Shown: positions 15,966-44,346 of the stretch, in pieces | Layout of the letters: the number at the start of each line of letters is the position of its first letter | Position numbering within the stretch: the stretch's first letter is position 1 | Source: a virus | Length of the DNA: 44,532 nt | IMG/VR virus record: IMGVR_UViG_3300035156_000361 | Span: 1-44,532 of that record | Direction: 5' to 3' (one strand) | The notes under the pieces: generated by a model | Database searches by the model: none | What the model was told of the DNA's origin: nothing | Seen by the model: the letters and a program-made list of their open reading frames with translations, nothing else | Position numbers and translations under genes: made by a program

Positions 15966-18500
15966 TTGCACGATCTGGTCGACGCTGCCGTGTCGGCCGG
16001 GGCAACCCACGAGGTTCCCCGGCTGACGCAGGTTCAGCTTGAGGAAGAAATGTACGCCTTCGGCCGCGCGCGAACGCAGCGCATGATGTCCCGCAACGAG
16101 GAAGGCGGCCGAGCCAACAATAACCCCTATGCCCAGGCGATCTACCGGCGCTTCGTGCTGCCGCTCGCCGCGATCATCAAGGAGGACACAGACACCAAGA
16201 AGCCCGGCCGTCGCAAGGCGCACACCGCGCTGCTCCTGCCGATGGACCCCGAGGCCGTCGCCTACCTCGCCGTCAGAAACGTGCTCAACACCCTGATGAA
16301 CGGCACCGACACCGCTTCTGGCGGCGCGAGCACGGGTCAGCACCCCAGCGACCACGGAAGCGCCGTCGGCGCGTCGGCGCGGGGCGTCGTGAACGCAGTG
16401 GGCAAGGCGGTCTACCACGAGCTGCTGCTCGGCCTGTTCGAGACGGCGGCGCCGGACCTGTTCTTTACCCTGGTCAACGACCTTGGCCGCCGCATGTCAA
16501 AGTCCGAGCGGCACCGCATGACGGTGTTTAAGCTCCAGGCCAAGGATAACGGCATCCCGTTCCCGGAATGGGGGACGGCTGGCGTACAGCAGGTCGGCGC
16601 CTACCTCGTGGACCAGCTTGAGCAGCTCGGCCTGGTTGAGACTTCGACGCTCACCATCGGCGCGTCGCGAGCCAGCGCCTTGCGGACTCGCATCGACGTG
16701 CGGCTGACGGGAGACGTGCTGGAGCTGATCGGACAGATCAAGGGGCACATCGTCGAGACGACGCCCTACTATCTACCGTGCATCGAGCCCCCGTGCGACT
16801 GGACGAGCATCCGGGATGGTGGCTTTCATACAAACGCCATGCGCCGGATGCAGCCCTTTGCAGTGCGCTCCCATGGCGGTTGGAGTGAGTTCGACGACTA
16901 TGACATCGGCACGATCCTTGCCGCCATCAACTCGCTCCAGCGGGTGTCTTGGCGCATCAACGGCGCCGTGCTCGACGTGGTTCGCCAAGCGGCTCGGCAC
17001 TTCGATATGGAGGAAATCCTCAGCCAGGCGGAGTTCCCGGCGCCCCCCAGACCCGTTTTCCTCACCGACCGTCCGGACCTAAAACAGGAACAGATGACGC
17101 CAGACGAGCTGGCCGCGTTCATCGACTGGAAGCGAGCCAAGTCGCAATGGTTCACGGAAATGAAGCTACGGGGCACCAAGTACGGTCGCTTCTACACGGC
17201 CACCACCGTAGCAGATAAGTTCCGAGGCTTCTCGGCAATCCATTTCGTCTACTTCGCCGACTTCCGGGGGAGGCTCTACGCGCAGACCACCGGCGTCAGC
17301 CCGCAGGGCTCCGACATGCAGAAGGCACTGTTACACTTCGCCGACGGCAAGCCGCTTGACACGGTGGAGGCCGAGCACTGGTTTATGATCCACGGTGCCA
17401 ACAAGTGGGGCCAGGACAAGCTCCCGTTACAAGATCGGATAGCGTACATCCGCAAGTATGACCGGCAAATCCTAGAGTTTGCGGCCGACCCTATTGGCTG
17501 CAATGACTGGCGCGGCGCAGACAAGCCTCTACAGTTCCTTGCGTGGTGCCTCGAATACGCAGAGTGGCGCCGCTCTCCACATACCTTCGTGAGCCGACTT
17601 CCGATTGGAATGGACGGCTCTTGCAACGGCCTCCAGAACTTCTCCGCGATGCTGCGCGACGAGGTGGGCGGAAAGGCGACCAACCTGGTCCCGGCTGCGA
17701 TACCCCACGACATCTACCAGATGGTCGCCGACGTGACCGCGCTGGGCCTGCGCCGAGCCGAACCTGACGAGCACGGCTACCGGGACCGTTGGCTGGCGCA
17801 CGGCATCGGCCGCTCCCTGGTAAAACGGTCGGTGATGACGCTTCCTTACGGCTCGACCCGGTTCTCCTGTGCAGACTTCATCGTCGACGACTACCTCAAG
17901 CAGGGCAAGGCAACCCAGTTCGCCCGAGAGGAGTATCGGCCGGCAGCGCAATACCTGTCCCACTTCGTTTGGGATGCCATAGCCGAGGTGGTGGTCAAGG
18001 CCCGTGAGGCGATGACTTGGCTACAGGCAGGTGCCCGGCAGATCATCAGGGCAGGGCAGGGGAGTGTGCGTTGGGTCACTCCAGCCGGCTTTCCTGTAAC
18101 CCAGTATTACCAGGAGCAGGACAACCACCGCATCCGCACGAGCCTGTGTGGCAACGCCTTCCTCCGGCTGTCGGTCGACAACGACACCCCCGACGGACAC
18201 CGGCACCGTAACGGCATCGCACCGAACTTCGTCCACAGCTACGACGCGGCTCACCTCCACCTCGTCACGGTGGTGGCGACGGCCGAGGGGCTGAACCTCG
18301 CGATGATACACGACGACTACGGCACCCACGCAGCCGATGCTGCGCGACTCTACCGGATTATACGCGAGGTGTTCGTGGCCATGTACGAGAGCTGTGACCC
18401 GCTCGCCCAGTTCGCCGAGACCTATGATCTGCCGGCGCCACCCGCGCGCGGCGCCCTCGATCTGCGGCAGGTGCTGGACTCACCCTACTTCTTCTCGTGA
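15966..18500 (+). CDS. Single-subunit DNA-directed RNA polymerase (T7 type)
   Basis: Protein of 844 residues. The TTG at 15966 is taken as start because the following block VQLEEEMYAFGRAR is typical of this family's N-terminus; no strong ribosome site is visible. All catalytic motifs are present: D550 in MDGSCNGLQNFSAML (motif A, T7 D537), R616, K620 and Y628 in RSLVKRSVMTLPYGS (motif B, T7 R627/K631/Y639), and D783 in MIHDDYGTHA (motif C, T7 D812). It lies directly upstream of the virion genes, the phiKMV-type position, and is followed within one base by a phage promoter motif. It should transcribe the structural and lysis genes from that motif. Confidence 0.96.
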   Translation: MHDLVDAAVSAGATHEVPRLTQVQLEEEMYAFGRARTQRMMSRNEEGGRANNNPYAQAIYRRFVLPLAAIIKEDTDTKKPGRRKAHTALLLPMDPEAVAYLAVRNVLNTLMNGTDTASGGASTGQHPSDHGSAVGASARGVVNAVGKAVYHELLLGLFETAAPDLFFTLVNDLGRRMSKSERHRMTVFKLQAKDNGIPFPEWGTAGVQQVGAYLVDQLEQLGLVETSTLTIGASRASALRTRIDVRLTGDVLELIGQIKGHIVETTPYYLPCIEPPCDWTSIRDGGFHTNAMRRMQPFAVRSHGGWSEFDDYDIGTILAAINSLQRVSWRINGAVLDVVRQAARHFDMEEILSQAEFPAPPRPVFLTDRPDLKQEQMTPDELAAFIDWKRAKSQWFTEMKLRGTKYGRFYTATTVADKFRGFSAIHFVYFADFRGRLYAQTTGVSPQGSDMQKALLHFADGKPLDTVEAEHWFMIHGANKWGQDKLPLQDRIAYIRKYDRQILEFAADPIGCNDWRGADKPLQFLAWCLEYAEWRRSPHTFVSRLPIGMDGSCNGLQNFSAMLRDEVGGKATNLVPAAIPHDIYQMVADVTALGLRRAEPDEHGYRDRWLAHGIGRSLVKRSVMTLPYGSTRFSCADFIVDDYLKQGKATQFAREEYRPAAQYLSHFVWDAIAEVVVKAREAMTWLQAGARQIIRAGQGSVRWVTPAGFPVTQYYQEQDNHRIRTSLCGNAFLRLSVDNDTPDGHRHRNGIAPNFVHSYDAAHLHLVTVVATAEGLNLAMIHDDYGTHAADAARLYRIIREVFVAMYESCDPLAQFAETYDLPAPPARGALDLRQVLDSPYFFS

Positions 18501-18521
18501 TTTGATACCGTCCTGCACAAG
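18501..18521 (+). promoter_or_regulatory. Phage RNA polymerase promoter, copy 1 (structural block)
   Basis: TTTGATACCGTCCTGCACA followed by AG, immediately after the RNA polymerase stop codon. The same 19-base core recurs at 33594 (identical) and 41237 (one change, G to C). It precedes the small ORF at 18534 and the virion genes. Assignment as a promoter for the phage polymerase is inference from recurrence, orientation and position. Confidence 0.8.
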
Positions 18522-33593: not shown

Positions 33594-33614
33594 TTTGATA
33601 CCGTCCTGCACAAG
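33594..33614 (+). promoter_or_regulatory. Phage RNA polymerase promoter, copy 2 (tail/lysis block)
   Basis: TTTGATACCGTCCTGCACA, identical over 19 bases to the copy at 18501, then AG. It lies 45 bases before the tailspike start, in a gap between the leftward small gene and the tailspike. Followed by a GC-alternating stretch and AT-rich CATTTATAGG, which contains the tailspike ribosome site. Confidence 0.8.
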
Positions 33615-38985: not shown

Positions 38986-40236
38986 ATGAGTGCCGCCCTC
39001 GGTCTGGCCGTCGCTGTGAAAGCACATGCGGCGCGCAACCGGACGATCGACACTCTGCGCCGCTCAATGGCCAGCACGGGCCTGCGCCTCCCCTCCATTA
39101 TGGCTAACCCGCCGACCATTGGAGCGCCCACCACAGCGACGGCAATCGCTGTCGGCACGACATGGCTTTACAACAGTCACGCCCTGCAAATCCCGGTGCG
39201 CTACACGCTGCTGGGGGGCACCGCGACTTTGCCGACTGGCTTTCCCGGCGGCGAGCTGGTGTCGATCACGTCCGTCACCTCGACGGGTACGACACGGGTT
39301 CCGGCGGGTGGCCGTATCCGCTTCACCAGCTACGCGCCAGCGTTCGAAATCCTCTTCATGGGGGGTTCGGGAAAGATGCGGATCAAGGTCGATGGCGAGT
39401 ATGTGAGCACGACGAGCTTTGGCGTTCCCGGTCAGCCGCTCAGCCCAAGTGGCGCGATCGCCAATGGTGTCTACCCGTATTTTCTCCCGATCCAGTGGGG
39501 CGATGGTTCGGCGTCCCAGCGAAAGCTTCGGCGTTACGAACTCGAGATGTCGAGCAACGGCAACGTCTACTTCGCCGGCCTTCGCGCGAGCAATCTATAC
39601 CCCCCTTCGCCTTGGCCGGTCGAGGACCATGTGCGCGTAATCGTGCACGGAGACAGCATAGTCGAAGGTGCAGGCGACGATCCGCACGGCACTGTCGGCA
39701 ATGCGCTGGGCAACATGCTGGGCCAGCCCGACACTTGGGCTTCTGGATCGGGCGGCACCGGGTACATCGCCAGCCTTGGCGGCACGAAGCACACGTTCAT
39801 TCAGCGTGTGCAGGCGGACATCATTGCTCCGGCGCCGGACTTTATCTTCGAGTGCGGCGGGCTGAATGACACAGCCAACCCCCAGACGACGATCCAGGCC
39901 AAGGTCGAGGAGTGGCTGGCGGCGGTGACAAGCGCGCTCCCGGCCGTGACGATCTTCATGGCCGGTCCGCTGGTCCCGAACGACACGGCAAGCGCGGCGA
40001 TCGTCGCTTGCCGTGACGCAAAGAAAGCTGCCGCCGCCGTGTTCAGCAAGAACACTTTTTTCCTCGATAACATCGCGGATAAGTGGGTAACCGGAAACGG
40101 CAAGGCCACGACGCCGAATGGCACCGGGAACGCAGACTGGATCACCTCCGGCGACAGCGTCCACCCGACGCTGGAGGGAAGTGTGTACCACGCATCCCGC
40201 CTAGCAGCCGGCGCCGCGGCAGTGCTCAACCGCTGA
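38986..40236 (+). CDS. SGNH/GDSL hydrolase, probable polysaccharide esterase
   Basis: Protein of 416 residues; ATG 38986 with GGGAGG eight bases upstream, preferred over GTG 38971. The C-terminal SGNH domain is complete: block I GDSIVEGAG with S224, block II Gly in GSGGTGY, block III GGLNDT with Asn, and block V D390/H393 in DSVHP. The N-terminal 215 residues form a beta-rich domain (strand repeats such as RIRFTSYAPAFEILFMGGS) that may attach to the virion or bind sugar. Such esterases remove acetyl groups from capsule or O-antigen; here it would complement the tailspike. A secreted or lysis-time role cannot be excluded. Confidence 0.88.
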   Translation: MSAALGLAVAVKAHAARNRTIDTLRRSMASTGLRLPSIMANPPTIGAPTTATAIAVGTTWLYNSHALQIPVRYTLLGGTATLPTGFPGGELVSITSVTSTGTTRVPAGGRIRFTSYAPAFEILFMGGSGKMRIKVDGEYVSTTSFGVPGQPLSPSGAIANGVYPYFLPIQWGDGSASQRKLRRYELEMSSNGNVYFAGLRASNLYPPSPWPVEDHVRVIVHGDSIVEGAGDDPHGTVGNALGNMLGQPDTWASGSGGTGYIASLGGTKHTFIQRVQADIIAPAPDFIFECGGLNDTANPQTTIQAKVEEWLAAVTSALPAVTIFMAGPLVPNDTASAAIVACRDAKKAAAAVFSKNTFFLDNIADKWVTGNGKATTPNGTGNADWITSGDSVHPTLEGSVYHASRLAAGAAAVLNR

Positions 40237-40253
40237 TCCATAGGAGCAACACC

Positions 40254-40757
40254 ATAAAGAAGATCGTCGTCTCGGCGGTGGCTGCGGCCATCGTCGGGGC
40301 AGCCGGCCTCTCGCTCACAATGACGAGCGAGGGGAAGGTCAACCGCGTCTACCGCGATCCGGTAGGCATCCTCACCGCCTGCTACGGCCACACAGGGCCA
40401 GAGCTGCGGATGGGGCAGACATTCACCGACGCGCAGTGCCAGGCGCTCCTCCGGGCTGATCTGGCCTCTCACCAGGCTTACGTCCGGTCGGGCTCGCCGC
40501 GGAACTGCATCAGCAACGTCCTGCTGAACCAGAACCAGCTGGACGCCGTGACGGACTTCGTTTTCAACGTAGGCCCCACCGCGTTTTGTAAGAGCACCTT
40601 GGCCGCGCGCCTCCGGCTTAGGGACTACCCCGGCGCTGCCGCTCAGTTTCCCAAGTGGGTCTACGCTCGTAAGAACGGCCAAGCCGTGCGTCTACCGGGC
40701 CTAGTCATCAGGCGGGACCGGGAGCGACGGTTGTTCCTAACTTCCGTCAATGCTTAG
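40254..40757 (+). CDS. SAR endolysin (GH24 muramidase), probable ATA start
   Basis: Protein of 167 residues. AGGAG (40242-40246) stands seven bases before ATA 40254; no ATG, GTG or TTG lies in the right place, and the next codons AAG-AAG start a typical signal-anchor (KKIVVSAVAAAIVGAAGLSL), so I take ATA as start. The active site E26, D35, T41 (E-x8-D-x5-T) has exactly the spacing of T4 lysozyme and P1 Lyz. Four further Cys may regulate activity through disulphides, as in P1-type SAR endolysins. The signal-arrest-release anchor means export by Sec and activation on membrane depolarisation by the holin. Confidence 0.85.
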   Translation: MKKIVVSAVAAAIVGAAGLSLTMTSEGKVNRVYRDPVGILTACYGHTGPELRMGQTFTDAQCQALLRADLASHQAYVRSGSPRNCISNVLLNQNQLDAVTDFVFNVGPTAFCKSTLAARLRLRDYPGAAAQFPKWVYARKNGQAVRLPGLVIRRDRERRLFLTSVNA

Positions 40758-40798
40758 GAATTATTTGATCTAGCAGGAACCAAGCCTGCTACCAAGTG

Positions 40799-40828
40799 TT
40801 GACTCCGGTTGGCCCTCATGCCTATAAG
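40799..40828 (+). promoter_or_regulatory. Sigma70-like promoter
   Basis: TTGACT and TATAAG, five of six matches each to the -35 and -10 consensus, separated by 18 bases; a start is expected near 40835. It reads rightward into the non-coding region toward the early genes. It overlaps a long hairpin, so opening of the DNA and folding of read-through RNA could interfere with each other. Confidence 0.55.
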
Positions 40829-40890
40829 CTCCCTGTGCCCAGATGGCACCCAGATGGAGCTGAGAGGCACCGTCAGGCTCAACCGGAGTC
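40801..40890 (+). other. 90-base extended stem-loop
   Basis: Nested pairs: GACTCCGGTTG (40801-40811) with CAACCGGAGTC (40880-40890); GCC (40812) with GGC (40876); TGCCT (40819) with AGGCA (40865); AGCTCC (40827) with GGAGCT (40856); GTGCC (40835) with GGCAC (40845) over loop CAGAT. About 30 base pairs in 90 bases, with no T-run at the end. Could be an RNase III-type site, a stable RNA or a DNA cruciform signal behind the late genes. Confidence 0.7.
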
Positions 40891-40960
40891 ATCCGGGGCT
40901 AACCTCCTCGCCGTGCTGGATCGGCTGCCTACGGGGCTAAAATCGGCATCATCGCGGTCG

Positions 40961-41011
40961 CTCGGATTGTAACCGAGTCCAGCCGGGCTAAGCGCAATGC
41001 TCAACCCGGCT
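40961..41011 (+). other. Two adjacent hairpins
   Basis: CTCGG (40961-40965) pairs with CCGAG (40973-40977). Four bases on, AGCCGGG (40981-40987) pairs perfectly with CCCGGCT (41005-41011), with an inner AGC/GCT pair. Neither has a T-run. They continue the hairpin-rich pattern of the region. Confidence 0.55.
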
Positions 41012-41236
41012 ACGGCCTGATTTTGATGTGCTGGTGAGAGGGGGCAACTCCGACTGTCAAAGACCGTAATCACCCCCGTGGGGGCCTGGGCGCGTCCGCG
41101 TTTGCGCGTGGATTAACTCCGGGCAGGCGCGTGGGCGCTCCCGGTTTCCGCTCAGGGTTAGGCCAATGGCTTAGCCGGAGTGGGGCAGGGTAGGCGCGGG
41201 GCCGATCTGTCTCGTTTGCCTGATGCTTAGCGGGGT

Positions 41237-41257
41237 TTTGATACCCTCCTGCACAGG
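41237..41257 (+). promoter_or_regulatory. Phage RNA polymerase promoter, copy 3 (non-coding region)
   Basis: TTTGATACCCTCCTGCACA followed by GG; differs from the other two copies by one base in the core. It reads rightward into non-coding sequence about 0.9 kb upstream of the first early gene at 42174. This placement suggests either a non-coding transcript, a primer for replication, or middle-time transcription of the early block. Confidence 0.75.
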
Positions 41258-41274
41258 CAAGCCGCATCTATTTG

Positions 41275-41294
41275 TCCGGGGTAATCCGGGGTTA
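41275..41294 (+). repeat. Tandem 10-base repeat
   Basis: TCCGGGGTAA is followed directly by TCCGGGGTTA. One mismatch. It lies 18 bases downstream of promoter copy 3 and could be a protein-binding site. Confidence 0.6.
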
Positions 41295-41426
41295 GAGCAC
41301 AGGCTAAGCCTTGGGTCGCGGTAGGGGTGTGATACCCGGATGATACACTCCCTGGTAACATGAACAGGGACCGGGGAACCTACAGGATTAGACCGGATGC
41401 AACGGGGATCGGCACTAGCCCAACCC

Positions 41427-41467
41427 CGACTAAGCCCGGCTATCAGCGCCACGGTAGCGACTAAGCC
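41427..41467 (+). repeat. Direct repeat CGACTAAGCC, two perfect copies
   Basis: Copies at 41427-41436 and 41458-41467, starting 31 bases apart, roughly three helical turns. Related CTAAGCC/GGCTTAG forms occur at 40984, 41167, 41302 and 41637. They could be arm-type integrase sites or packaging repeats analogous to the short repeats next to the T7 ends. Confidence 0.55.
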
Positions 41468-41745
41468 AATTAAGGGGCTTGCAATCAAGCCTGAGACGTG
41501 GGACAACAATGGGGACGGCGGCGATACGGGCTTACAGCCTAGCCGGGGTCAAGGTTCCCGCCAACGGGGCCGGATCGAATAGGTGACAGGTGCAAGAGGC
41601 TAGGCCTCCTCTCCCCTAAGAACCCGGATCATCCGGATTAAGCCTTGCCCTAGTGCAGTAGCGCCAATGTCGAGTGACGGGCCAAAGAGCCCGCACATAC
41701 CGGGTTCCTTTCAGGGACCAGCCGCAAGGCAACGGCTCATTGTGA

Positions 41746-41766
41746 GTGACAGCGCATGACTGTCAC
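41746..41766. promoter_or_regulatory. Perfect 7-bp inverted repeat GTGACAG/CTGTCAC
   Basis: GTGACAG (41746-41752) and CTGTCAC (41760-41766) with a 7-base spacer. Related half-sites GTGACAG at 41583 and GTGACGG at 41674 lie upstream. The spacing of half-sites suggests an operator or recombinase-binding site. Confidence 0.5.
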
Positions 41767-41814
41767 CGTCCCTACGGGGGACGCCTAGCGGGCAATCCGG
41801 CAAGCTAACTGTTC

Positions 41815-41855
41815 GCCATGCTGTAAGTGGCGGGACTTGAACGGACCCTTTGCGG
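41815..41855 (-). other. Possible attP core resembling a tRNA 3' end
   Basis: Read leftward, GTTCAAGTCCCGCC matches the T-loop and 3' T-stem of many bacterial tRNAs. The 5' strand of the T-stem does not pair (GTCCG against CCCGC) and no acceptor partner exists upstream, so it is not a full tRNA gene. Tyrosine integrases often use tRNA 3' ends, and the integrase lies about 1.5 kb away, hence the attP suggestion. Confidence 0.35.
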
Positions 41856-42002
41856 GGTGCGGCAGGCTCCTGGTGCTAGGTGAATAGAGCGTAGGGCAAG
41901 GGGAGCACCCCTAATAGCGACGGGCTGGCATAGCCTGGTAGCAGTCCCTGTAGATAGAGCTGGCGGCGACTGACTGCGCCGTGTCCGCTCTACTAGCCTG
42001 AC

Positions 42003-42057
42003 AGTGCCTAGTCTGTCCGGTCCTTGTGACCGGGTGCGAACAGATACACTAGGCACT
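42003..42057 (+). other. 55-base structured element
   Basis: AGTGCCTAGT (42003-42012) pairs perfectly with ACTAGGCACT (42048-42057); inside, CTGT (42013) pairs with ACAG (42040) and CCGGTC (42017-42022) with GACCGG (42028-42033) over loop CTTGT. Twenty pairs in 55 bases. It is a strong candidate for a folded RNA or a cruciform upstream of the first early gene. Confidence 0.65.
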
Positions 42058-42066
42058 AGCAGTGGT

Positions 42067-42096
42067 GGCTGGGCGGTCCTTCGGGATAGCCCTGCC
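42067..42096 (+). other. Stable hairpin with TTCG tetraloop
   Basis: GGGC (42071-42074) pairs with GCCC (42089-42092) and GTCC (42076-42079) with GGAT (42084-42087) around a TTCG loop; the stem can extend by GGC/GCC past a T-T mismatch. It lies 78 bases before the 42174 start. UUCG loops give very stable RNA hairpins, so a 5' leader or processing role is likely. Confidence 0.6.
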
Positions 42097-42173
42097 AAGC
42101 GCCATTCATGTAACAGCGCACCGTCCATCCTCCACTCCTAGTGCTTTCGCTAGGTGACATAGGAGTATGTGAC

Positions 42174-42740
42174 ATGGCCACGACCAAGATCGACATGACC
42201 AATCCGGCCCTCGTGCTGGAGAGCCTCAAGTCCCGCGATACCAATGGTTACGACACGGGTCTGCTCAAGACCTCGATCCGCACCATTGCCACCGCTGGCT
42301 CGAAGCTCGACGCTCGCATTCATGCCACCGCCTGTGCTCTCTTGGAGCGCGCTGCGGATCATCGTGACTGCTCGCTGGTCCCGTCGCTGGTCGAGGCGAT
42401 GCCCAAGTCCTCGCGCCGTAAGGCGTTGATCGCCTGGTTCCATGCCTACTCCAACGTCCGCATTGTCGTAAGCCCGAAGGGCGAGGTGACGGCTGGCGTA
42501 CCCAAGGTAGATAGCAAGCTGTACGTCGAGCCTCGCTCGGCCGATGCCTTCGCCAAGCCCTTCTGGTCGGTTGAGGAAAAGGAAACCGATCCTCGTGCCT
42601 TCGACGACGCCGCCTTCGCCAAGGCTGTGCAGTCCCTGATTGCTCGTGCCAAGTCCGATGCAGCCAGCCTTTCGCCTGCTGCTGCCGCTGCACTCGCCGA
42701 CCTGTCCTTGGTCGGACAGAAGCTGGCGCCTGCTGCCTAA
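42174..42740 (+). CDS. Early protein of unknown function (188 aa)
   Basis: ATG 42174 with AGGAG eight bases upstream, preferred over GTG 42141, whose first codons include a hairpin. The product is helical and Ala/Ser/Lys-rich, with SRRKALIAWFHAYSNVRI in the middle and an Ala-rich C-terminal helix. Codon use is less GC3-rich than in the virion genes. Such small helical proteins at the head of the early region with their own terminator occur in several podophages. It is the first gene after the non-coding region and is followed by an intrinsic terminator, so it is probably expressed strongly and first. No family recognised. Confidence 0.8.
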   Translation: MATTKIDMTNPALVLESLKSRDTNGYDTGLLKTSIRTIATAGSKLDARIHATACALLERAADHRDCSLVPSLVEAMPKSSRRKALIAWFHAYSNVRIVVSPKGEVTAGVPKVDSKLYVEPRSADAFAKPFWSVEEKETDPRAFDDAAFAKAVQSLIARAKSDAASLSPAAAAALADLSLVGQKLAPAA

Positions 42741-42975: not shown

Positions 42976-43031
42976 CGCCTCGACGCACTCTGCGGCCTGT
43001 CCTCGTGTTCGTGGTGCGCGCTTGTGCCGTC

Positions 43032-43105: not shown

Positions 43106-43456
43106 ATGATTAGTGCCGCGTCTGTCGAGTCGCTTGCGCCGCAGGTCAGCCCTCGGGCGATGACCGTCGCCCAGGTGGCTGCCCTCTGGGGGGTCTCCGA
43201 CACCTTCATCTATGACCTGTGCAATGGGGGGCACCTCCCCGGCGCATTCAAGCTGGGGCGCAAGCTCTGGCGCATCCCGCCTTGGGCTGTGGAGGAGTAC
43301 GAATGTCGAGCCAACAGTGGCGCCTTGGAAAGCTCACCCGAGGGCGAACCGATGGTTCCGCCTATTGGAGCTGGTGCATCATCTGGAACAAATCAGACGG
43401 CGGGCGAGGACGTGTCTCGCTTGGCACGACTGACAAGGCAGCCGCGCAGACGCTAG
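43106..43456 (+). CDS. Excisionase-like HTH protein
   Basis: Up to 116 residues from ATG 43106; ATG 43160 is an alternative. Residues about 19-68 form a MerR/HTH_17-type winged helix: MTVAQVAALWGVSDTFIYDL, then GHLPGAFKLGRKLWRIP and AVEEYE, the pattern of excisionases and other small DNA-bending proteins. The C-terminal 50 residues overlap the integrase gene by 154 bases in another frame and look low in complexity, so they may matter little. It should direct the integrase to excision or regulate the lysogeny genes. The overlap suggests tight coupling with the integrase. Confidence 0.8.
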   Translation: MISAASVESLAPQVSPRAMTVAQVAALWGVSDTFIYDLCNGGHLPGAFKLGRKLWRIPPWAVEEYECRANSGALESSPEGEPMVPPIGAGASSGTNQTAGEDVSRLARLTRQPRRR

Positions 43457-44346
43457 CTCGGGAGTTCTGGTCGAAGCTCACGCTGTCCTCGGTCGAGACT
43501 GTGGGGCAGGTGATCGACGCCTATCTGGCGACGCTTCCCGATCCGAGGGCGAAGCCGGACATGAACACGGCGTCGGCTATCAAGGGCAGCTTTCGCAAGC
43601 ATACCTCGTGGAAGGCAGCCAAGCCCTTCTGGGGCAACCTCACGATGGATCAGATCGACGAGCAAACCAGCGGCGATTACGTCGACTGGCGCAAACGCGC
43701 CTCGAACACGCTCCGCAACGAGCTGGGGCTGATCCGCACGGCGCTCAACTGGGCGGCCAAGCGCAAGCTGATCCCGTCTGCGCCTCGCATCGTCCTGCCC
43801 GCCATGCCCGAGAGCACGGTCGAGCACCTGTCGAAGCCGCAGTTCCGCAAGTTCCTCGCAGGTTGCCGTGCGCCGCATGTCGTCCTGTTCGCTCAGCTCG
43901 CCGTCCTTACGGGTGGCCGGGCCAAGGCTCTGTTGGAGCTGACCTGGGACCGTGTTGACCTTGAGCGGGGGCTACTCACGCTCAACCCACCGGGCCGGGT
44001 GCAGAAGGCGAACAAGACGCGCGCCACCGTGCCACTCAACGACCGCGCTATGAGCTTGCTCGGCGAGGCGAGGGCAGGGGCCACGTCTGACTTCGTGATC
44101 GAGCATAACGGCGGGCCTATCGGCGACATCAAGAAGGGCATCCTGGCTGCGAGCCAGCGATCCGGCGTTCACGCCAGCCCGCATGTCTTCCGGCACTCGG
44201 CGGCCGTATGGATGGCCGAGGATCGGACGCCGATGGACGAGATTGCTCGCTTCCTCGGGCACACGGACACCCGCATCACGAGCCGGGTCTACGCCAAGTT
44301 CAGCCCGGACTACCTGCGCCGGGCCGCGAAGTCCCTGGACTGGTAG
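43303..44346 (+). CDS. int: Tyrosine integrase
   Basis: Protein of 347 residues from ATG 43303, which has GGAGGAG six bases upstream. A short basic N-terminal arm-binding-type segment is followed by a core-binding domain (about 60-170, SAM-like, with QVIDAYLATLPDP and WAAKRKLIP). The catalytic domain has R206 (TGGRAKALLEL), H294 and R297 (HVFRH), H320 (FLGHTD) and Y330 (SRVYAKF), the full R-H-x-x-R-H-Y set. It should insert the phage at an attB site; the candidate attP lies about 1.5 kb upstream. Integrases are uncommon in this phage group and imply a temperate life style. Confidence 0.95.
   Translation: MSSQQWRLGKLTRGRTDGSAYWSWCIIWNKSDGGRGRVSLGTTDKAAAQTLAREFWSKLTLSSVETVGQVIDAYLATLPDPRAKPDMNTASAIKGSFRKHTSWKAAKPFWGNLTMDQIDEQTSGDYVDWRKRASNTLRNELGLIRTALNWAAKRKLIPSAPRIVLPAMPESTVEHLSKPQFRKFLAGCRAPHVVLFAQLAVLTGGRAKALLELTWDRVDLERGLLTLNPPGRVQKANKTRATVPLNDRAMSLLGEARAGATSDFVIEHNGGPIGDIKKGILAASQRSGVHASPHVFRHSAAVWMAEDRTPMDEIARFLGHTDTRITSRVYAKFSPDYLRRAAKSLDW

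What the first reader, a model, noticed from the sequence alone, without database searches (positions are those of the whole stretch)
40758..42173. 1.4 kb non-coding region dense in nested inverted repeats
In a genome where genes overlap by a few bases, 1.4 kb lacks any convincing gene. It holds a 90-base stem-loop with about 30 pairs, a 55-base element with 20 pairs, a TTCG hairpin, several perfect 5-7 bp hairpins and two promoters. This may be a structured non-coding RNA, a packaging/terminal-repeat region, an att region, or a mix. The nesting in the 90-base and 55-base elements is hard to explain by base composition alone.
Basis: partly seen in the sequence, partly recalled or inferred. Interest (0 to 1): 0.8.

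Follow-up and report, generated by a model that had tools for sequence, protein, structure and literature searches.

The report
Switchable RNA leader in T7-like phage
The gene-free 1.4 kb is the ordinary end-and-start control region of a T7-like virus of bacteria, but its last 170 bases encode a conserved RNA whose helices compete with one another just in front of the first gene, and this RNA is not in the RNA library searched.

Summary
The window is a whole autographivirus (T7 group) genome, related to Caulobacter, Brevundimonas and Sphingomonas phages and carrying an integrase. The finding covers the junction of its genome ends, which is gene-free for about 0.9-1.75 kb in all relatives checked. 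By homology it holds a terminal repeat (~41046-41205) and one phage-RNAP promoter (41237-41257).

The strongest helix was missed: P2, 42053-42077 with 42120-42144. It lies 30 nt before the first early gene and covaries strongly across 13 phages (15 of 19 pairs with compensatory double changes, 0/500 shuffles). Its 5' arm is shared with the 55-base helix (P1), and its 3' arm with a small hairpin (P3) beside the ribosome-binding site. Rfam has no match.

Best reading: the 5' leader of the first early mRNA, positioned like T7's first RNase III site, and probably a folding switch (P1+P3 versus P2) that affects processing and translation of that gene. Structure and conservation are shown; function is inferred.

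A second conserved element (41571-41636) was found only in the three integrase-bearing phages. The 90-base hairpin is not conserved and remains unexplained. The att reading is unsupported.

The parts
40800..40891 (.). nested 90-base inverted repeat in the right-end stretch, about 200 bp left of the predicted terminal repeat
   Evidence: z -6.65 on + and -6.42 on -; no strong counterpart in L002 or L102; T7 has a palindrome at a similar distance from its repeat
41020..41045 (.). conserved motif at the left border of the terminal repeat (probable terminase cut region)
   Evidence: alignment by eye with Percy, Cd1, Scott, L002 and L102
41046..41205 (.). predicted direct terminal repeat, about 160 bp, present once in the assembled record
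   Evidence: borders match the annotated DTRs of Percy, KSC, BL198, BL199 and Lullwater
41237..41257 (+). phage-RNAP promoter (phiOL-like)
   Evidence: same motif at 18501 and 33594; 3 matches against 0.06 expected
41264..41274 (+). GCATCTATTTG box, conserved across genera, function unknown
41571..41636 (+). second conserved element, found only in the three integrase-bearing phages
42003..42011 (+). strand A: 5' arm of helix P1
   Evidence: fold z -3.27; P1 null p=0.003 in the window
42049..42057 (+). 3' arm of helix P1, overlapping strand B
42053..42077 (+). strand B: 5' arm of helix P2
   Evidence: covariation in 13 phages
42120..42144 (+). strand C: 3' arm of helix P2, contains ACTCCTA complementary to the Shine-Dalgarno region
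42137..42154 (+). hairpin P3 (CCTAG 42137-42141 with CTAGG 42150-42154), strands C and D
   Evidence: outer pair covaries C-G to A-U
42161..42165 (+). Shine-Dalgarno AGGAG of the first early gene
   Evidence: sequence, coordinates checked
42174..42740 (+). first early gene (phrog_1448, unknown function)
   Evidence: phrog_1448 E 3.7e-28; first or second gene at the left end of relatives

Best explanation
The region is the joined genome ends and early control region of a T7-type phage: right end, terminal repeat, phage promoter, early leader. Its last ~170 nt are the 5' leader of the first early mRNA, a conserved RNA with four strands A-B-C-D. These can pair either as A:B (P1) plus C:D (P3) around a shorter inner B:C helix, or as a full-length B:C helix (P2). 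Proposed action: transcribed early, the leader first makes P1 and then, once strand C is made, can rearrange to the long P2. P2 is a 20-25 bp, RNase III-sized duplex at the position of T7's first processing site, and it holds the CTCC-containing strand C away from the ribosome-binding site. When P2 is absent, strand C folds onto the Shine-Dalgarno side. So the leader sets when and how strongly the first early gene is processed and translated. Shown: the helices as covarying pairings, the sharing of strands, the position. Inferred: transcription, cleavage, and the direction of the effect on translation.
For: P2: 94.3% of cells paired against 72.3% in shuffles, 15/19 pairs and 57 cells with compensatory double changes, 0/500; slid controls far lower. 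Own-arm pairing 137 against a permuted mean of 94, 0/20000. A CTAG-helix-CTAG plus P3 scan of 913 kb, both strands, gives 12 hits, all in front of an early gene, with none of the full motif elsewhere. P3's outer pair covaries C-G to A-U; in the window's group the C of that pair is mismatched in P2, so P2 alone does not explain its conservation. P1 beats shuffles in 9 of 13 at p <= 0.003 and in a tenth at 0.043. The best long-range helix reaches 0/60 shuffles in 21 leaders, the 3' arm mostly 10-30 nt before the start codon. P1 and P2 folds lie within about 0.5-2 kcal/mol in window, L002, BL199 and L023. CTCC lies in the 3' arm of 12 of 13 against 12% of random NCR 17-mers. In the 3' fragment without strand B the SD is predicted less accessible than with P2 formed in L002 (0.25 vs 0.99), L022 (0.00 vs 0.38), L102 (0.00 vs 0.46), L023 (0.15 vs 1.00; SD placed by rule there) and L044 (0.10 vs 0.39). 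T7's leader hairpin 853-901 ends 24 nt before gene 0.3.
Against: In the window itself predicted SD accessibility hardly differs between states (0.17 vs 0.22), and in Percy, KSC, BL198, BL199, Lullwater and Cd1 there is little difference; L047 goes the other way (0.91 without strand B vs 0.27). P2 costs 4-8 kcal/mol against P1+P3 in KSC, Percy and BL198, so the balance is not conserved. P1 was not significant in L022, L044 and Cd1. Most of the aligned sequences were chosen by a scan that requires complementary arms, which biases the percentage paired. No transcript data were available for any member. T7 shows no helix of the long-loop type.
Confidence: 0.5

Rival explanations
1. A plain RNase III processing site in front of the first early gene, like the T7 site before gene 0.3. 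P2 is simply the duplex that is cut; P1 and P3 are by-products or 5'-end hairpins with no switching.
For: Position and size of P2; T7 hairpin at a similar distance from its first gene; the phage encodes a kinase of the T7 gene 0.7 kind, whose PHROG description mentions RNase III.
Against: Does not predict the conserved sharing of both P2 arms with P1 and P3, nor the covarying P3 outer pair.
Confidence: 0.3
2. DNA-level element: cruciform, replication origin or packaging signal; pairing matters in DNA, not RNA.
For: Palindromic CTAG cores; terminal repeat and short repeats close by.
Against: P2 keeps a position just in front of an early gene and not a fixed place relative to the terminal repeat, and its 3' arm carries anti-SD sequence.
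Confidence: 0.07
3. Transcription attenuator or terminator in the leader.
For: Competing hairpins as in attenuators.
Against: No T run; no terminator-like site found where 2.0 are expected by chance.
Confidence: 0.06
4. Attachment site (attP) of the phage integrase within the region.
For: Integrase gene 1.1 kb downstream; the 41571-41636 element is shared only by integrase-bearing relatives.
Against: No prophage or attB found; the P2/P3 element is also present in relatives in which no integrase is annotated, such as Percy.
Confidence: 0.04
5. Chance hairpins from base composition, or a missed gene.
For: High G+C; small hairpins are common and several 120-nt windows are within the shuffled range.
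Against: Covariation 0/500 and arm-swap 0/20000; no conserved ORF.
Confidence: 0.03

Closest known systems
T7 left end: terminal repeat, short repeats, phiOL, A1-A3, RNase III site in front of gene 0.3
   Same: Same order: terminal repeat, phage promoter, long gene-free leader, strong hairpin ending about 25-30 nt before the first gene.
   Different: Longer gene-free stretch; the hairpin has a long apical region (42 nt) and shares both arms with neighbouring helices; T7 has no helix of this type. RNase III cleavage untested here.
Left ends of Caulobacter phages Percy, KSC, BL198, BL199, Lullwater and Cd1
   Same: Same gene-free left end (1.26-1.55 kb), DTR motifs and P2/P3 leader element with covarying sequence.
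   Different: The 41571-41636 element was not found in them. The leader was not mentioned in the two papers consulted (PMC4661307 read; PMC11053796 searched by keyword).
Translational attenuators with competing hairpins (erm-type leaders; own knowledge)
   Same: 1:2 and 3:4 versus 2:3 pairing in front of a ribosome-binding site.
   Different: No leader peptide or inducer identified; predicted SD masking is not uniform.
LUZ100, an integrase-bearing T7-like phage (PMC10134795)
   Same: T7-like phage with an integrase near the early end and phage-specific promoters.
   Different: The passages viewed describe MarR-based control and no structured leader; 'intergenic', 'non-coding' and 'RNase III' do not occur in the paper.

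Membership tests
Autographiviridae (T7 group phages) | single-subunit phage RNA polymerase with T7-type gene order | tested here: met
   phrog_414 E 2e-282 at 15966-18500; 62-67% to Caulobacter, Brevundimonas and Sphingomonas phages
T7-type genome end region | direct terminal repeat between the last lysis gene and the first early gene | tested here: inconclusive
   borders predicted by homology to annotated DTRs; no read ends available
T7-type genome end region | phage-RNAP promoter near the left end | tested here: met
   motif repeated after the RNAP gene and before the tail fibre gene
T7-type genome end region | host sigma-70 promoters for early genes | tested here: inconclusive
   strict E. 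coli-type consensus scan finds none on the + strand; divergent alphaproteobacterial promoters are not covered by that scan
RNase III processing site | double-stranded stem of about two turns | tested here: met
   P2, about 20-25 pairs with one mismatch conserved in most
RNase III processing site | cleavage by RNase III | not testable with these tools
   needs RNA from infected cells
Translational attenuator | mutually exclusive helices, one masking the ribosome-binding site | tested here: inconclusive
   competing helices found; SD masking without strand B predicted in 5 of 13 only
Any Rfam family | match to a covariance model | tested here: not met
   no match at gathering score or at E<=1 in 40700-42250
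Intrinsic terminator | GC stem followed by a T run | tested here: not met
   0 found, 2.0 expected by chance
attP site | identity to a host attB, often the end of a tRNA gene | not testable with these tools

The most novel reading that the evidence does not exclude
A new class of phage leader RNA: a four-strand exchange (A:B + C:D to B:C) kept by covariation across several autographivirus genera, and by apparent replacement of the whole core (CTAG to CCTGC in L084), that times expression of the first early gene; in the integrase-bearing clade a second element (41571-41636) adds an input such as the lysis-lysogeny choice.
Probability: 0.25. Interest if true: 0.75.

Novelty: new variant of a known kind. 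Interest (0 to 1): 0.5.

Why it matters
In the records examined here, the gene-free left ends of T7-like phages are annotated only for promoters and terminal repeats. A covarying leader with competing helices in front of the first early gene gives a specific, testable RNA control point for phage takeover, in phages of a genetically tractable host (Caulobacter). The integrase-bearing relatives add a second candidate element that could bear on how T7-like phages choose between lysis and lysogeny.

Tried and rejected
Alignment search with eight divergent first-gene proteins: no pattern conserved enough. Integrase searches of viral contigs returned only L002, and of bacterial genomes nothing, so no prophage or attB was found. 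The exact pattern GTGCGAA..CTAGGCAC found L002 and two unrelated contigs (L015, L016), rejected as chance after inspection. L101 was judged a chance hairpin. The GCATCTRT motif was first taken for a genome-wide phage promoter and rejected: GCATCTAT occurs once in the window. The promoter motif is the TTTGATACC..TCCTGCACA one. The idea that 41571-41636 is a tRNA fragment (attP) was dropped because the conserved blocks do not extend into an acceptor stem (inspection). Blastn of the leader against phages: no match. A pattern search for the second element with a loose pattern gave 30 stretches, of which only L102 and L017 (the L002 contig) also match the stricter pattern; the other 28 were not inspected. 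No covariance model was built: the variable loops (37-114 nt) would make a shared model weak.

Full report
What the window is. The record is 44,532 bp, a virus record. It encodes a T7-type RNA polymerase (phrog_414, E 2e-282), DNA polymerase, exonuclease, connector, capsid, tail proteins, a protein kinase of the T7 gene 0.7 kind, terminase, endolysin and a tyrosine integrase. The polymerase is 62-67% identical to those of Caulobacter, Brevundimonas and Sphingomonas autographiviruses. The order is terminase, lysozyme (ending at 40757), the gene-free stretch, a phrog_1448 gene (42174-42740), integrase (43219-44346).

Why the stretch is gene-free. In many related isolates the phrog_1448 gene is among the first genes, usually 1.2-1.7 kb from the left end. 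Bases before the first annotated gene: Percy 1400, KSC 1319, BL199 1264, BL198 1395, Cd1 1509, BC 1418, Lullwater 1550, JG068 1210, UFV-P2 1204 (a podovirus not placed in Autographiviridae), Paso 1480, Sphaerotilus phage R1 959, Quill 1503, Petty 1335, phiKMV 1745, T7 924. The 1.4 kb is therefore the normal end-junction and early control region. No ORF is conserved through it in L002 or L102: hits are short fragments that largely follow the conserved DNA blocks.

Anatomy of the junction. Annotated terminal repeats of Percy, KSC, BL198 and BL199 end at GGGGCA or GGGACA followed by TCTATCTT, Lullwater's one or two bases away, and in Percy the repeat starts after GCGAGAGGGCC. The window has similar motifs at 41036-41045 and 41200-41206, giving a predicted repeat of about 160 bp. 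At 41237-41257 stands a phage-RNAP promoter motif that recurs just after the polymerase gene (18502) and before the tail fibre gene (33595), 3 matches against 0.06 expected.

The 90-base hairpin (40800-40891) folds at z -6.65 and -6.42 on the two strands but has no strong counterpart in L002 or L102. Its centre lies about 200 bp left of the predicted repeat. T7 has a palindrome (39568-39608) about 190 bp left of its own repeat, taking that repeat as 160 bp (own knowledge). That similarity is a lead, not a test. The 55-base element (P1) is real (z -3.27) and present in L002 with changed but still pairing sequence.

The missed element. Helix P2 joins 42053-42077 with 42120-42144. A scan for CTAG-helix-CTAG followed by a CTAG hairpin over 913 kb on both strands gave 12 places, all in front of an early gene, and none of the full motif elsewhere; one of them (L046) nearly repeats another. 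L102 came from a P3 sequence pattern, and Cd1 was added by inspection. On 13 sequences P2 has 19 pairs, 94.3% paired, 15 pairs with compensatory double changes, 57 such cells; no shuffle of 500 reached the paired percentage, the double-change cells or the covariation score, and slid controls fall to 32-52% paired. Swapping arms between 12 phages lowers pairing from 137 to a mean of 94 (0/20000). P3 has four invariant pairs and one that covaries C-G to A-U. Eleven of the 13 were found with a criterion of complementarity, so the percentage paired is biased upward; the position of the hits is not affected by that.

Competing helices. P1's 3' arm overlaps P2's 5' arm, and P3's 5' strand lies within P2's 3' arm. 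P1 beats shuffled upstream sequence at p <= 0.003 in 9 of 13 and at 0.043 in L047. Forced folds put P1+P3 and P2 within about 0.5-2 kcal/mol in window, L002, BL199 and L023, and 4-8 apart in KSC, Percy and BL198; the Cd1 value is not usable because the forced P1 register was poor. In the window's P2-forced fold a strand upstream of A pairs with strand D, so the whole can be read as a strand exchange. L084 shows the same layout with a CCTGC core in place of CTAG.

Link to translation. Strand C holds ACTCCTA (42134-42140), exactly complementary to TAGGAGT over the Shine-Dalgarno (42160-42166). CTCC occurs in the 3' arm in 12 of 13 phages against 12% of random 17-mers here. Predicted SD accessibility is lower without strand B than with P2 formed in L002, L022, L102, L023 and L044, much the same in the window and the Caulobacter phages, and higher in L047. 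So masking of the SD is supported in part of the family only.

Breadth. Of the first-gene leaders examined, 21 have a best long-range helix not reached in 60 shuffles; P14, JG068, UFV-P2, Petty and T7 have none of this type. Rfam gives no match.

Second element. At 41571-41636 the window, L002 and L102, the three integrase-bearing phages, share GGATCGAATAG and CCGGATCATCC exactly, with a hairpin between them that changes mostly by compensation; 6 of 18 pairs have double changes, 0/500. With three sequences this is suggestive only. On their own these 78-nt stretches do not fold better than shuffles (z 0.80, -0.83, 0.75), so the case rests on conservation and covariation. Its function is unknown.

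Judgement. The gene-free stretch is ordinary. The leader RNA element is conserved and, as far as the tools and the papers searched show, undescribed. Mechanism is inferred: processing and translation control of the first early gene by competing helices is preferred (0.5), plain RNase III processing is the main rival (0.3).

Noticed in passing
window 41571-41636; L081 10156-10220; L102 4050-4113: Conserved, covarying 66-nt element found only in the three integrase-bearing T7-like phages; not in Rfam.
   Followed up: partly
window 41264-41274: GCATCTATTTG box conserved just right of the terminal repeat across genera, with a related ATCTGTCTCG/ATCTATCTTG motif at the repeat's end; function unknown.
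   Followed up: partly
window 18501-18520 and 33594-33613: Phage-RNAP promoter motifs directly after the RNA polymerase gene and before the tail fibre gene, the same motif as in the gene-free region.
   Followed up: yes
L011 1542-1600 (Lullwater): The annotated start of the first gene lies inside the P2/P3 element; an ATG further downstream fits the other members better, so the start may be misannotated.
   Followed up: no
L084, L055, L048, L041, L064, L096 upstream of the first early gene: A CCTGC..GCAGG hairpin takes the place of the CTAG hairpin, in L084 with matching P1 and P2: apparent replacement of the whole core.
   Followed up: partly
window 42985-43009; L002 5784-5808: 25-bp island conserved with L002 in an otherwise diverged stretch upstream of the integrase; attP candidate, untested.
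   Followed up: no
window 40897-41640: Scattered GGCTAA/TAAGCC/ATCCGG short repeats strongly enriched over the rest of the genome, reminiscent of the short repeat arrays next to T7's terminal repeat.
   Followed up: partly
window 40758-41045: No spanin gene was seen between the lysozyme and the predicted right end, where related isolates carry Rz/Rz1.
   Followed up: no
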